From: a virus
Direction: 5' to 3' (one strand)
IMG/VR virus record: IMGVR_UViG_3300046713_000129
Span: 1-39,430 of that record
Length of the DNA stretch: 39,430 nt
Below the pieces are notes generated by a model that did no database searches, had not been told where the DNA came from, and worked only from the letters and a program-made list of their open reading frames with translations. The position numbers and the translations under genes are program-made. The number at the start of each line of letters is the position of its first letter. The first letter of the stretch is position 1. Of the stretch, positions 4,813-19,462 are shown in pieces.

Positions 4813-5051
4813 GTGAGATTGATGAAACAATGAATGTAGAGCATTTTGATAAGTGCATTTTGAAGCTCTCTGATTTCATTGGATGGGCGCAGATAGAGGG
4901 TATGTCAATCCCATGCTGCTTGGCCTCTATGATTCACGTCATGCAATGCTCTTTCGAAACTTTGGGCATGAGCAGGTTAGACGTTAAAGAAATCCTTCAA
5001 TGCGTTATCAATCAATACGATGAGGAAAGCCGTGAAGCAAGTGAAGCGTAA
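4809..5051 (+). CDS. Hypothetical protein (80 aa)
   Basis: GTG start overlapping the stop of the small terminase (GTGA). Helical, with four scattered cysteines. It could be a small helical partner protein. Not recognised. Confidence 0.6.
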   Translation: MSEIDETMNVEHFDKCILKLSDFIGWAQIEGMSIPCCLASMIHVMQCSFETLGMSRLDVKEILQCVINQYDEESREASEA

Positions 5052-5334
5052 GAAAAAATCTATTGAAGATCATGCTAGAGATATTGCGTTCTTTGATGGC
5101 TCTTTAAATCCATTCCTACCCAACAAGATCAAGCTCACGGGAAAGAAGATTCGCTTTGTAAGGAATGGAAAGCTAACCGCTCCCCGAAAACAATCTCATC
5201 CCCGTCTTAGGCAAGCCCTATCCATGATTAAGAATGATTGTCTTATTCGAGACTTCCCCAATGCTATTCGCTTGATTATATGGGAGCTAATGAAGACACA
5301 AACGCGTATAGCGAGACTAGAGGGCAAGCCATGA
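5020..5334 (+). CDS. Basic hypothetical protein (104 aa)
   Basis: Overlaps the previous gene by 32 bases. The N-terminus is strongly basic (KQVKRKKKSIEDHARD), suggesting nucleic-acid contact; the C-terminal half is helical. Not recognised. Its stop overlaps the next ATG. Confidence 0.6.
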   Translation: MRKAVKQVKRKKKSIEDHARDIAFFDGSLNPFLPNKIKLTGKKIRFVRNGKLTAPRKQSHPRLRQALSMIKNDCLIRDFPNAIRLIIWELMKTQTRIARLEGKP

Positions 5335-6734: not shown

Positions 6735-6938
6735 ATGCAAATTTATATGATTATTCGTTTATTGAAGGAAAGCGAACAAGATGGCAATCTGAATCAGTCT
6801 AGCTATATGTGTGAATTTACATATTCAAAAGAATGGGTTGCCCAGATTCTTAAAAAAAATAATGTACGTTATGATGTTTTTATCTATGAATTTCCCTCTT
6901 TGAAGCAAGTCACCAAAGCGGAGATTTCAATAGAGTAA
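6735..6938 (+). CDS. Small hypothetical protein (67 aa)
   Basis: AGAGGA precedes the ATG. Predicted beta-alpha-beta small domain (MIIRLLKES ... FIYEFPSLKQV). Its TAATG junction couples it to the RNA ligase gene. Not recognised. Confidence 0.6.
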   Translation: MQIYMIIRLLKESEQDGNLNQSSYMCEFTYSKEWVAQILKKNNVRYDVFIYEFPSLKQVTKAEISIE

Positions 6939-7597
6939 TGGAATATTTCAAGATCAATAGCCTATGGAAGCGTGAGCAATACGTCAAAGATAAGCCGAAA
7001 GGGACGCATGGCGCTTTGATTATCGGGGACTATTCAGAGCCTGAATTCGGGAATATAAAGCGATGGCGTGTAGATGAGAAGATTGACGGGACAAATATTC
7101 GGATACGATTTTCTAAAGCCCTTCCCAATGCTCTCGGAAGCTTATCTTTCGATGGGCGTACCGATAGTGCTCAAATACCAAAAGAACTGCTCGTTTATCT
7201 TGAAAGAACATTTACGCGTGAAAAGCTTGGCGAAGTCTTTCCCGATGCTGTGGATGTAATCTTGTATGGAGAAGGATACGGCCCAAAGATTCAATCATGC
7301 GGTGGAAATTATCGCTCTGATCCCTCTTTCATTCTTTTTGATGTATTTGCTAATGGTTGGTGGCTAAAGCGATCAGATGTTGTAGAAATAGCTCTAAAAC
7401 TGTCTATCGACACCGTTCCCGACCTTGGGGTTATGTCAGAGGAAGATATCGTTGAATTCGTCAAGTCTAAGCCTCTCTCGCGTTGCTCTATGATTCCTCA
7501 AATGATGGAAGGCGTTGTTTGCCGTTCTGATCCATTGGTTTTGTTTCGGAATGGTAAACCATTAGTGTGGAAGCTCAAATGTAAGGAATTTGCTTGA
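6938..7597 (+). CDS. RNA ligase family protein (nucleotidyltransferase)
   Basis: ATP-dependent ligase of the RNA ligase class. Motif I is VDEKIDGTNIRI with Lys48 as the AMP-accepting residue. Motif III (ILYGEGYG, about 108-115), IIIa (FILFDVFANGWW), IV (MEGVVCRS, about 190) and V (WKLKCKEF, at the C-terminus) follow in order. At 219 aa it is a bare catalytic core without an added C-terminal domain, like the compact Rnl2-type enzymes. Such enzymes seal RNA nicks, for example in tRNA cut by host defence nucleases. It is coupled to the genes on both sides. A role with the tRNA-like genes at 11.5-12.0 kb is inference. Confidence 0.85.
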   Translation: MEYFKINSLWKREQYVKDKPKGTHGALIIGDYSEPEFGNIKRWRVDEKIDGTNIRIRFSKALPNALGSLSFDGRTDSAQIPKELLVYLERTFTREKLGEVFPDAVDVILYGEGYGPKIQSCGGNYRSDPSFILFDVFANGWWLKRSDVVEIALKLSIDTVPDLGVMSEEDIVEFVKSKPLSRCSMIPQMMEGVVCRSDPLVLFRNGKPLVWKLKCKEFA

Positions 7598-8298: not shown

Positions 8299-9632
8299 AA
8301 GACGACGCTAAACAATCCGTAGTCATTGATCTTCCTCATAATTACAAATGTCGGGACTACCAAGAGAAGTTTTGGCTAGAGATGGCTAAGAAAAGACGTT
8401 GTTGCCTAGTATGGCATAGACGAGCAGGAAAGGAGAAAACATGCTGGAATTACATGATTGTCAAAGCCTGCCAAAAAGTAGGCGTGTATTACTATTTGTT
8501 TCCTCATTTCAGCCAAGGAAGAAAGATTCTATGGGATGGCATGGATGCAAATGGGAAAAAGTTCTTAGATCATATCCCGAAGCAGCTTATTTCAGGGGAT
8601 CCCAATGCAACCGAAATGAAAATAAGGCTGGTTAATGGATCCATCATACAGATCATTGGAACGAATAACGTGGACTCTATTGTTGGCACTAATCCTATCG
8701 GGTGTGTCTTTAGTGAATATTCTCTACAAAATCCTATAGCCTGGCAGCTAATTAGGCCCATCTTAACAGAGAACGATGGATGGGCGATCTTCAATTTTAC
8801 TCCAAGGGGTGCTAATCATGCCAAAGAATTATATGACATGGCTAATTCTAATAAGTCTTGGTTTTGCCAGCTTCTCACTGTGGAGGATACGGGGGCAATA
8901 TCCCCTAGTGCAATTGAAGAAGAGCGCTCTGGCGGAATGTCCGAAGATTATATCCAACAAGAGTTTTACTGCTCCTTCACTCTAGGGATTGAGGGATCTT
9001 ATTATGCAAAATACATGCAGGACGCAAGAGATGAAGACAGAATCGGAGCCGTTCCCTGGCAAAAGACGGGTAGAGTTTATACGGCTTGGGATATCGGGAT
9101 TGGAGACTCAACCGCAATCATTTTCTTCCAACTTGTCGGCAATTCAGTCCACATTATCGACTATTACGAAAATCAAGGAGAAGGACTGCCCCATTATGCA
9201 GAAATTCTTTTTCGCAAGCCGTACCTTTATGCAGATCATTATGCACCGCATGACGTACAAAACAGGCACTTTTCTAGTGGAATGTCAACCCTTGAAGTCG
9301 CTGGAGGACTTGGACTTAAATTTACCGTCTTACCGACTCTTCACATACGAATTGAGGAGGGTATCGAAGGTTTACGGGGCATCTTCCCGCGTATTTACAT
9401 GGATGAAGTTAAATGCAAGCACCTCATTAAGTGCATAGAGAATTACCGCAAGGAGTTCGATGACAACCACAAGGTTTACAAAAATCGTCCCGTTCACGAT
9501 TGGGCCTCTCACGGAGCCGATGCAGCGAGATATCTTGCAATTGCTGTTAAACGCTTTGTCGATAGCAAGGGTGGCCCTTCGGATTCTGACGTAGAGAAGA
9601 TGATGGATAAATATCAACCAAGGTTTAGTTAA
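8295..9632 (+). CDS. terL: Terminase large subunit
   Basis: ATPase and nuclease of the DNA packaging motor, docking on the portal at 12576. The Walker A variant VWHRRAGKEKT lies at residues 39-49, Walker B with catalytic Glu at CVFSEYS (about 135), and the coupling motif NFTPRGANH follows. The RNase H-like nuclease domain has Asp in AWDIGIGDSTA (about 267) and the final acid in WASHGADAARY. At 445 aa it has the usual length. The start is TTG at 8295, overlapping the previous stop. The next gene begins at its stop codon (TAATG). Confidence 0.95.
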   Translation: MKDDAKQSVVIDLPHNYKCRDYQEKFWLEMAKKRRCCLVWHRRAGKEKTCWNYMIVKACQKVGVYYYLFPHFSQGRKILWDGMDANGKKFLDHIPKQLISGDPNATEMKIRLVNGSIIQIIGTNNVDSIVGTNPIGCVFSEYSLQNPIAWQLIRPILTENDGWAIFNFTPRGANHAKELYDMANSNKSWFCQLLTVEDTGAISPSAIEEERSGGMSEDYIQQEFYCSFTLGIEGSYYAKYMQDARDEDRIGAVPWQKTGRVYTAWDIGIGDSTAIIFFQLVGNSVHIIDYYENQGEGLPHYAEILFRKPYLYADHYAPHDVQNRHFSSGMSTLEVAGGLGLKFTVLPTLHIRIEEGIEGLRGIFPRIYMDEVKCKHLIKCIENYRKEFDDNHKVYKNRPVHDWASHGADAARYLAIAVKRFVDSKGGPSDSDVEKMMDKYQPRFS

Positions 9633-11612: not shown

Positions 11613-11685
11613 ACGCGCAGTAGCTCTACTACTGCATAGGAGAAGAATTGACAAAGCACTTCTTAAACAAAAGCCCCGTTACCAT

Positions 11686-11757
11686 GCTAGAGTAGCTCAA
11701 TGGTAGAGCAGCGTTCCTGTAAATCGACGGTTGAGGGTTCAAGTCCTTTCTCTAGCA
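11686..11757 (+). tRNA. tRNA-like gene, nearest to tRNA-Thr(UGU)
   Basis: Normal length (71 bases plus discriminator A). Acceptor GCTAGAG/CTCTAGC, D arm GCTC-AATGGTA-GAGC and T loop TTCAAGT are canonical. By alignment the anticodon is UGU (Thr) in the loop CCTGTAA. However, position 33 is C instead of the near-universal U, and the stem has two mismatches (G-A, U-U). A slipped pairing (CGTT with GACG) gives a larger loop with GUA in frame. The anticodon is therefore uncertain. CCA is not encoded. Confidence 0.6.
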
Positions 11758-11762
11758 ATATT

Positions 11763-11862
11763 GTGAGAGTAGTTTAGAGTTCGGGCAAGTATACCACCCG
11801 AAACATGGTTAAAGCCGAGACTGACGGGTCTAATGATGCAGGTTCGAATCCTGCCTCTCACA
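11763..11862 (+). tRNA. 100-base tRNA-like element
   Basis: Acceptor GTGAGAG/CTCTCAC and T arm GCAGG-TTCGAAT-CCTGC are perfect. The interior can be read two ways. First, a D stem GTTT/AAGC (11772-11775 with 11812-11815) with a 6-bp hairpin TTCGGG/CCCGAA inserted in the D loop. Second, a class II tRNA with anticodon stem ACCA/TGGT, loop text CCCGAAA (Ser-CGA-like but C33), and a variable arm AGAC/GTCT. Neither is canonical; the amino acid is unassigned. Confidence 0.5.
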
Positions 11863-17222: not shown

Positions 17223-18164
17223 ATGGCAATTACTAACTTAGCACAATTACCACCAGAAGTACGGACATATTTTGACCGTCTTTTGTTGGCGTTAGCAAGA
17301 CCATACTTCATCTACGATCTTTTCGCCCAAAAGCGTCAAATTCCGCTCAATTCAGGCGATCAGATGGTATTCCGAAGATACGGAACCCTAACAGCAGCCA
17401 CAGTTCCTCTTACAGATGGTCAAACACCAACTGGAGATCAATTGTCTGTTACAGACTTTAAAGCAGAGATCCAATGGTACGGTTCATTCGTTACTATTAC
17501 AGATCAAGTTCAATACGTTGTCCAAGACAGAGTTCTTAATGAAGCGACAAAAGTCCTCTCATTACAACTCGGTCTCACAATCGACACCCTCATCCGCGAT
17601 ATGATGGTTTCTACGGCTTCAACAATCGCATGTTCTAATGGATTAAACGGAAATACCCCAACAGAGATCACCGATGCAGACATTCAAGATGCTATCGTAG
17701 CTCTACGTCAGGGAAATGCCCGTCTCATGACAAATCCTCTCCCTGGAGAAAATAAATTTGGAACTGCTCCCGTAAGAGCAAGTTTCTGGGGATTCATGAG
17801 TGTCGATATGCAAGCTGACCTGGAAGCAGTCGATTCCTTTATTTCTAGCGCGAACTATCCAAACCCTCTCAATGCTCTTGAGGCGGAATGGGGTTCTACA
17901 AGAAACGTTCGCTGGCTGTTGAACACAAACGGCTTCAGTAACGGCGCATCACCAAACGTCTACTCATCATTCCTCATTGGCCAAGAAGCCTATGGTGTTG
18001 TTCGTTTAGGTGCTAAAGAAGCCGAATTTATCGTCAAACCACTTGGCGCATCTGGAACAGCAGACCCCCTCAATCAACGAGGAACAGTCGGCTATAAATA
18101 TCCTTTTGCTACTCGTATTTTGAACGACAATTGGATCACTCGTTTAACTGCAACATTATCATAA
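17223..18164 (+). CDS. Major capsid protein, N4-gp56 family
   Basis: HK97-fold shell protein. The N-terminal pattern FDRLLLALARPYFIYDLFAQ, GDQMVFRRYGTLTAATVPLT and LSVTDFKAEIQWYGSFVTIT is typical of the N4 gp56 family. At 313 aa it is compact. The C-terminus (RGTVGYKYPFATRILNDNWI) is the usual closing strand. Its assembly may depend on host GroEL with the phage GroES at 6123. It follows the scaffold by 20 bases and precedes a decoration-like gene. Confidence 0.9.
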   Translation: MAITNLAQLPPEVRTYFDRLLLALARPYFIYDLFAQKRQIPLNSGDQMVFRRYGTLTAATVPLTDGQTPTGDQLSVTDFKAEIQWYGSFVTITDQVQYVVQDRVLNEATKVLSLQLGLTIDTLIRDMMVSTASTIACSNGLNGNTPTEITDADIQDAIVALRQGNARLMTNPLPGENKFGTAPVRASFWGFMSVDMQADLEAVDSFISSANYPNPLNALEAEWGSTRNVRWLLNTNGFSNGASPNVYSSFLIGQEAYGVVRLGAKEAEFIVKPLGASGTADPLNQRGTVGYKYPFATRILNDNWITRLTATLS

Positions 18165-18178
18165 GGAGTGATTAAATT

Positions 18179-18898
18179 ATGGCTATTATAAGAAAAGGTA
18201 CTTTGACTGTCGGAACTGGTGGAGTTGCTCAAAACCTAGTTTTGGGATTTATTCCTAGCTATTTCCGTATGGAGAACAAAACAAAAATCGTTGGCAACAC
18301 TAACGGCGTACAAATTGCCGAGTGGTGGGATGATAACGCGAACGCATCAGCATACATCCAAACAATGACTGCTGGCGCTCCTGTTCTCAGCTATATTTCT
18401 ACCAATGGTTTTACTCCCTATACGACTGTTGACGCTTCGTTGTACACATCAACGAATTTAACAATCACAGGGATTAGCAAAGCAGCTAATGCAAGCATTA
18501 CAGCAACACACAATTTCACTTCTGCTGATATTGGAGTGACTGTTGTAACATTCCATAATGTTGTTGGCATGACTCAGATTAATACGCTCTCTGGCGTTAT
18601 CCAATCTGTGACTAGCACAACAAGCTTCACTGTTAATATCAATTCAACAGCTTTCTCAACATGGGTAAGCGGTGGAATTGCAAATGTTATCACTGGAAGA
18701 CCAGCTTTACAAGGTGGATCTCTGACAAGCGGAAACGCTCTAGGATTCCCTCCTTTGAATCTGCCAACAAGCCAAGTCTTGAATACTGCTCTGTTTAACA
18801 ACGGAACAATTGGACTGACATTGGGAACTTCTTTGATGGTAACGACAAGTGATGTCTGGCAATTCTACGCATTGCTAGATACTCCTGTTACTAGCTAA
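18179..18898 (+). CDS. Virion protein with E1-FCCH-like domain (decoration or tail)
   Basis: 239 aa. The N-terminus (MAIIRKGTLTVGTGGVAQNL) looks like a capsid-associated beta domain. Residues about 94-165 form a beta domain (SITATHNFTSADIGVTVVTF then VVGMTQINTLSGVIQSV and FTVNINSTAFSTW) of the type annotated as E1-FCCH in phage structural proteins. The gene at 19094 has the same domain alone. AGGAG precedes the start. Position after the capsid gene suggests a head decoration protein. Confidence 0.7.
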   Translation: MAIIRKGTLTVGTGGVAQNLVLGFIPSYFRMENKTKIVGNTNGVQIAEWWDDNANASAYIQTMTAGAPVLSYISTNGFTPYTTVDASLYTSTNLTITGISKAANASITATHNFTSADIGVTVVTFHNVVGMTQINTLSGVIQSVTSTTSFTVNINSTAFSTWVSGGIANVITGRPALQGGSLTSGNALGFPPLNLPTSQVLNTALFNNGTIGLTLGTSLMVTTSDVWQFYALLDTPVTS

Positions 18899-18900
18899 AC

Positions 18901-19080
18901 AACGTGGAGTGGGGGTTACCCGCTCGGCAGACTAGCGCTTAGGACTGAGATTTCTCGGTCGCGTGATTGTTATAAAGCAGGCCGCATACTAGTCAATGCA
19001 CCTGAAGTCTTCTCTCGCGTTATGCGTGAGAAAAGTCGAGGGTGCTCTGGGGTTCCGTACCTCAGAGTTACCCCTTTCTT
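18901..19080 (+). ncRNA. Strongly structured RNA between two structural genes
   Basis: The 195-base gap has no gene but at least four stable hairpins: 18907-18925 (7 bp), 18943-18960 (7 bp), 19010-19032 (8 of 9 bp, enclosed by GCACC/GGTGC at 18998/19041) and 19045-19067 (9 bp). A long-range helix GACTAG (18930-18935) with CTAGTC (18989-18994) encloses the second hairpin, and GGGT/ACCC encloses the last. Wobble pairs (18910-18922, 18946-18957, 19050-19062) are U-G on the plus strand and mismatches on the other, so the RNA is rightward. GC content is well above its surroundings. No known RNA class recognised. Confidence 0.75.
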
Positions 19081-19093
19081 CTTATAGGACAAT

Positions 19094-19462
19094 ATGTCAA
19101 ATGCTATCCCTCCTTCAGTAACACCTCCCTCTCCGAATGAATGGCCTGAAACCATTCGTACTATCACGGGAATAACTAAGGCAAGAGAAGCAACTATCAC
19201 ATGTCCAACTCATGGTTTTACATCCGAAGATCTCAATGTAACAACAGTCGGATTTTTACAAGTCAAGGGAATGATCCAGATTAATGGACTCCCTGGTGTT
19301 ATTCAACAGGTCATAGATGCAAATAATTTCACTGTCAATATTAACACATCCCAATTCACGTCATACGTTAGTGATGGTGTCATCAGCATCGAAACCGGAA
19401 CCCCTCCCATCGAGCAAGTCGGATCTCAATGGTTTAATACCCCTTTCCAAAATATCTCATAA
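19094..19462 (+). CDS. Second E1-FCCH-like virion protein (122 aa)
   Basis: Residues 25-95 (ITGITKAREATITCPTHGFT, VKGMIQINGLPGVIQQV, FTVNINTSQFTSYVSDGV) match the domain in the protein encoded at 18179, so this is a tandem paralogue without the N-terminal part. Likely a decoration or stabilising protein on the head. It follows the structured RNA by about 15 bases. Confidence 0.65.
   Translation: MSNAIPPSVTPPSPNEWPETIRTITGITKAREATITCPTHGFTSEDLNVTTVGFLQVKGMIQINGLPGVIQQVIDANNFTVNINTSQFTSYVSDGVISIETGTPPIEQVGSQWFNTPFQNIS

What the first reader, a model, noticed from the sequence alone, without database searches (positions are those of the whole stretch)
18901..19080. Unrecognised, highly structured RNA inside the head-gene operon
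The sequence shows at least four long hairpins plus two enclosing helices, one of them long-range, packed into a 195-base gap. All wobble pairs are consistent only with the rightward strand, and GC content jumps above the neighbours. The flanking genes are paralogues, so the element sits exactly between a duplicated domain. No known phage RNA (tRNA, pRNA, riboswitch) is recognised. It could be a packaging-type RNA, a processing signal or a translation regulator.
Basis: partly seen in the sequence, partly recalled or inferred. Interest (0 to 1): 0.85.

Follow-up and report, generated by a model that had tools for sequence, protein, structure and literature searches.

The report
Covarying structured RNA behind phage capsid genes
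Between two head genes of an uncultivated phage lies a roughly 175-base RNA whose letters change almost completely from one relative to the next while its base pairs are kept; it matches nothing in the RNA library and probably separates the highly expressed capsid message from the genes that follow, although its function is untested.

Summary
The 195-base gap between p1 (18179-18898) and p2 (19094-19462) encodes a plus-strand RNA filling the space from p1's stop codon to p2's ribosome-binding site. It has no Rfam match. BLASTN finds almost nothing even in close relatives, but relatives whose capsid protein is 90-96% identical keep the fold: helix P1 closing a four-way junction (H1, H2, H3), then H4, AA, H5, and H6 inside an outer helix P7. 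The loops of H2 and H4 are complementary. On a hand-made structural alignment of nine full copies, 97.5% of cells pair and 41 of 54 pairs show compensatory changes (slid controls 35-42%). The long-range helix that single-sequence folding draws with p2's ribosome-binding site is not conserved. The H4 loop is always a six-base palindrome, so the RNA might dimerise. The element is patchy; 90% of relatives' gaps here carry a strong hairpin, neighbouring head-gene gaps rarely do. Best reading: an elaborate cis-acting boundary element ending or protecting the capsid/p1 message. A free small RNA, a riboswitch-like regulator or an oligomerising RNA remain open; a phi29-type packaging RNA is unlikely. 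RNA and structure are well supported; function is inferred.

The parts
17223..18164 (+). major capsid protein gene upstream of the element
   Evidence: PHROG 1357 major head protein E 3e-41; Pfam Phage_capsid_4
18179..18898 (+). p1, head-operon gene with an E1_FCCH-like domain; its stop codon overlaps the start of the RNA
18898..19073 (+). whole conserved structured RNA
   Evidence: homologues with compensatory changes; fold z -3.6
18898..18904 (+). P1, 5' strand (AACAA + CG), pairs with 18962-18963 and 18967-18971
   Evidence: swap test 4 of 362880
18907..18925 (+). hairpin H1
18927..18938 (+). hairpin H2 (only two pairs in the window, three or four in relatives); loop bases ACTAG 18931-18935 complement the H4 loop
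18943..18960 (+). hairpin H3
18962..18971 (+). P1, 3' strand (CG, bulge TGA, TTGTT)
18978..19004 (+). hairpin H4; its loop holds the six-base palindrome ACTAGT 18988-18993
19005..19006 (+). invariant AA between H4 and H5
19007..19037 (+). hairpin H5, base GTC...; inner length varies between homologues
19040..19073 (+). P7, outer helix around H6 (GGGT 19040-19043 with ACCC 19070-19073)
   Evidence: exact complement in 11 of 11 homologues, 29% when swapped, 0 of 100000 permutations
19045..19067 (+). hairpin H6, GC-rich, where other relatives carry a single hairpin
19084..19089 (+). ribosome-binding site of p2 (ATAGGA), left outside the conserved structure
   Evidence: sequence; pairing with 18883-18888 not conserved
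19094..19462 (+). p2, gene sharing the E1_FCCH-like domain with p1

Best explanation
The gap encodes a real, conserved structured RNA inside the late mRNA: P1[H1 H2 H3] - H4 - AA - H5 - P7[H6], with a contact between the loops of H2 and H4. It most likely works in cis as a boundary element between cistrons. It can form once ribosomes leave the p1 stop codon (P1 starts at or within about 14 bases of it) and ends about 11-23 bases before p2's start. It protects the 3' end of, or partly ends, the abundant capsid/p1 message, and keeps p2's ribosome-binding site free. Shown: the conserved structure, its strand, the loop complementarity, its fixed position, and that the same site carries a hairpin in nearly all relatives. 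Inferred: the transcript-end or stability function, the role of the loop contact, and any dimer.
For: Structure: 97.5% of 437 cells paired and 41 of 54 pairs with double changes on A6, 0 of 500 shuffles, slid controls 35-42%; P1 swap test 4 of 362880; P7 in 11 of 11. Function: the p1-p2 gap is the one regularly hairpin-bearing junction around the capsid genes: 90% of 40 distinct gaps have a hairpin below -10 kcal/mol (median -23.4) against 4-5% before and after the capsid gene, 25% for p2-p3 and 1-3% further on. Some relatives have a stem plus T-run there (L038, L065). The element is single-copy and always in this gap. No gene family accompanies it, so no dedicated partner protein is indicated. 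The conserved helices end before p2's ribosome-binding site.
Against: A plain hairpin suffices in most relatives, so a boundary role does not explain the four-way junction, the loop contact and the invariant unpaired bases. H6/P7 in L010, L029, L095 and L153 is not followed by a T-run, so it is not a standard intrinsic terminator. No expression data exist.
Confidence: 0.47

Rival explanations
1. A free-standing small RNA is cut out of the capsid mRNA and acts in trans, for example on host RNAs, ribosomes, nucleases or a defence system.
For: Compact fold of about 175 bases with defined ends and invariant unpaired bases; patchy accessory distribution; no partner gene needed.
Against: No plus-strand promoter or terminator is predicted in the gap. 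Apart from loop bases explained by the loop contact, no long unpaired seed is conserved.
Confidence: 0.25
2. A translation regulator or riboswitch-like element for p2: a ligand or protein stabilises the junction and the H2-H4 loop contact and so changes p2 expression.
For: Four-way junction plus kissing loop to a following hairpin is the layout of B12 riboswitches (PMC11260477); the element ends next to p2's ribosome-binding site.
Against: The conserved helices leave the p2 ribosome-binding site free and its long-range pairing is not conserved; few invariant bases although ligand pockets are usually conserved; mid-operon site; no Rfam riboswitch match.
Confidence: 0.14
3. An oligomerising RNA: H4 loops of two molecules kiss through their palindrome, or H2 and H4 loops join molecules head to tail, and the RNA serves head assembly or packaging.
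For: All 11 full and half forms have a self-complementary hexamer in the H4 loop; its first base follows its last base (permutation p 0.015), which the H2 loop cannot explain; half forms without H2 keep it. Comparable covariation within one loop marks symmetric intermolecular contacts in OLE and GOLLD (PMC12286853).
Against: The intramolecular H2-H4 contact explains most of the loop. Canonical terminase and P22-type portal; many close relatives lack the element, so it is not an essential packaging part. No dimer was tested.
Confidence: 0.08

Closest known systems
Single terminator-like hairpin in the same gap of related phages
   Same: Same position after p1; H6 sits where the single hairpin sits.
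   Different: The full RNA adds P1, H1-H5 and the loop contact, and often lacks a T-run.
Capsid-gene boundary terminators of other phages (T7 Tphi after gene 10, M13 terminator after gene VIII; own knowledge, two literature searches returned nothing to cite)
   Same: Placed just after highly expressed coat genes, where expression must step down.
   Different: Those are simple hairpins; this is a covarying multi-helix RNA without a consistent T-run.
Cobalamin riboswitch (RF00174)
   Same: Helix closing a four-way junction, one arm of which kisses the loop of the next hairpin (PMC11260477).
   Different: No Rfam match; not at an operon's 5' end; H5 and H6 lie between the kissing hairpin and the start codon.
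phi29 packaging RNA (pRNA)
   Same: Phage RNA of similar size with complementary loops and drifting sequence (own knowledge).
   Different: No Rfam match; terminase-type packaging genes; absent from close relatives.
GOLLD, ROOL and OLE RNAs
   Same: Ornate RNAs of mostly unknown function, GOLLD and ROOL in phages, with loop-loop contacts (PMC12286853).
   Different: Much larger, GOLLD and ROOL often near tRNA islands; no Rfam match here.

Membership tests
Any Rfam 15 family | covariance model match | tested here: not met
   No match up to E = 5 for 18850-19120; none over the element in homologues
Cobalamin riboswitch | B12 box and ligand-binding core (RF00174) | tested here: not met
   no RF00174 match up to E = 5
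Cobalamin riboswitch | four-way junction with a kissing loop to a downstream hairpin | tested here: met
   same order of helices by covariation as described in PMC11260477
phi29 pRNA | Rfam family match | tested here: not met
phi29 pRNA | RNA is part of the packaging motor | not testable with these tools
   terminase large subunit found and relatives lack the RNA, which argues against it
GOLLD / ROOL / OLE | Rfam family match | tested here: not met
Intrinsic terminator | GC-rich stem followed by a T-run | tested here: inconclusive
   window P7/H6 is followed by CTTTCTTCTT; L010, L029, L095, L153 have no T-run; the scan calls no plus-strand terminator in this gap
tRNA or tRNA-like | cloverleaf recognised by ARAGORN or RF00005 | tested here: not met
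Group I intron | P3-P8 / P4-P6 core with J8/7, interrupting a gene | tested here: not met
   p1 and p2 reading frames are uninterrupted; the consensus fold lacks the P4-P6 domain and J8/7; no Rfam match

The most novel reading that the evidence does not exclude
A new class of phage noncoding RNA that switches between a monomer held by the H2-H4 loop contact and a dimer held by the H4 palindrome, used in head morphogenesis or against the host; relatives without the 5' domain could only dimerise.
Probability: 0.12. Interest if true: 0.85.

Novelty: new variant of a known kind. Interest (0 to 1): 0.6.

Why it matters
It is a well-supported RNA structure family without a library entry, found in a group of uncultivated phages by structure where sequence search finds almost nothing. 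It sits where a phage would be expected to step down from very high capsid expression to the next products, so it gives a concrete handle on how such ratios are set. The mix of full, half, short and single-hairpin forms in near relatives is a natural series for asking why an RNA becomes elaborate.

Tried and rejected
BLASTN of the element against phage records: no match; against IMG/VR loci, one 48-base piece besides itself. The long-range helix with p2's ribosome-binding site was rejected. Gene-content association gave no candidate partner; the RNA ligase gene is present with and without the element. Capsid relatives in bacterial genomes: none found, so the host is unknown. Straight MAFFT alignment of the gaps misplaces variable hairpins, hence the N-padded hand alignment, checked letter by letter against the sources; it favours the structure it was built for. 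The bootstrap model R1 was built from trimmed, N-padded copies of the same nine sequences, so its scores for them are by construction. The P1 and P7 swap tests use fixed or near-fixed positions and are fairer. With thermodynamic scoring P7 is only weakly separated from swaps (p about 0.03-0.05); with exact complements it is clear, though there the 5' four-mer was chosen by eye.

Full report
WHAT WAS CHECKED. The window is a 39.4-kb virus record with a P22-type portal, a terminase large subunit and a PHROG 1357 major head protein. The finding lies in the 195-base gap between p1 and p2, two head-operon genes that share an E1_FCCH-like domain. The plus strand folds significantly better than shuffles, the minus strand does not, and the gap is the most stable 200-base stretch sampled in the window. 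Rfam has nothing for it.

RELATIVES. Capsid-protein searches in IMG/VR gave about 100 contigs. BLASTN of the element finds only one 48-base piece outside the window itself, although capsid proteins are up to 96% identical. Reading the gaps directly showed the same order of hairpins in L001, L002, L010, L014/L015, L019, L029, L079 and L095/L145. A covariance model of the P1-H4 core recovers these; its scores for them are by construction. In 91 sources the only other match of note is the half form L153 (E 0.0055), with L007/L009 weak (E 0.64). In 23 whole records the element is single and always in this gap.

STRUCTURE. A hand alignment of nine full copies, checked against the source letters, gives P1 closing H1, H2 and H3; then H4; invariant AA; H5; and H6. 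Across 54 pairs, 97.5% of cells pair, 41 pairs have double changes, and 0 of 500 shuffles reach this on any measure; sliding the partners drops pairing to 35-42%. The alignment was fitted to the structure, so a fairer test was made for P1: with fixed windows on either side of the junction, own strands beat swapped ones in all but 4 of 362880 permutations. The outer helix P7 around H6 is an exact four-base complement in 11 of 11 sequences against 29% for swaps. G-U cells number 30 against 4 A.C cells, which fixes the strand. The contact between loops 2 and 4 is paired in 95.6% of cells, with three of five pairs changing on both sides; its swap test gives p = 0.005.

LOOP 4. The hexamer is ACTAGT, GCTAGC, ACCGGT or GCTAGT, self-complementary (one G-U) in all 11. 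Loop 2 accounts for most bases but not for the first base of loop 4, which follows the last base of loop 4 (permutation p 0.015, not corrected for relatedness). Half forms L007 and L153 lack H2 yet keep the palindrome. In OLE and GOLLD, covariation inside one loop was read as a symmetric contact between molecules (PMC12286853). A dimer is therefore possible here but not shown.

SITE. Around the capsid genes only the p1-p2 gap carries hairpins regularly: 90% of 40 distinct gaps, against 4-5% on either side of the capsid gene and 25% or less downstream. A few relatives have a clear stem plus T-run there. Full, half, short (H4-AA-H5-H6 without the 5' domain, e.g. L060, L084, L068, L004) and single-hairpin forms alternate among close relatives; well-supported branches of a capsid-gene tree force at least three changes of the full form. 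No gene family goes with the element among the genomes compared.

MECHANISM. Position, strand, orientation and the hairpins that other relatives carry at this site favour a cis-acting boundary element that ends or protects the capsid/p1 message while leaving p2's ribosome-binding site open. That step is inference. The elaborate fold is not explained by it, so a free RNA, a riboswitch-like regulator and an oligomer remain rivals. The arrangement of junction and kissing hairpin matches the B12 riboswitch layout (PMC11260477), but the family test fails, so only the resemblance stands.

LIMITS. All relatives found are metagenomic contigs, the host is unknown, and there is no expression or probing data. 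Nine full and two half forms are few. In the window itself H2 has two pairs and P1 is A-U rich, and the minimum-energy fold prefers another long-range helix that relatives do not keep.

Noticed in passing
L145:4516-4761 and 4999-5215, L143:6541-6760 and 6959-7134, L080:8682-8920 and 9035-9249, L063:8871-9078, L068:8289-8519, L030:4548-4778; larger inserts in L048, L055, L060, L066, L074, L076, L150, L153: Capsid genes of many relatives are interrupted at a dozen or so different codons. The small inserts (about 170-250 bases) show a group I-like core (GACTA ... P8 hairpin ... AAGCGATAGTC), yet Rfam finds no intron at gathering score, nor up to E = 1 in the L145 inserts.
   Followed up: partly
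window 11685-11862: Two adjacent tRNA-like genes; ARAGORN reports one of undetermined type with a four-base anticodon gtaa, Rfam reports two tRNAs, the second 100 bases long.
   Followed up: no
window 6938-7597: RNA ligase gene (PF09414 E 5e-15; PHROG 548), present in relatives with and without the structured RNA.
   Followed up: partly
window 17223-17480: The start of the capsid gene folds unusually well for coding sequence: z -6.3 for 17251-17450 in the scan (25 shuffles), -3.3 on refolding 17223-17480.
   Followed up: partly
L002:8371-8695: After the RNA, this relative has about 300 extra bases before p2 that seem to hold a small reverse-strand reading frame (read by eye).
   Followed up: no
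L153, 74 bases upstream of 8345: The half form L153, lacking H2, has a second ACTAGT near the end of p1 that could pair with its H4 loop; L007 has none, so it may be chance.
   Followed up: partly
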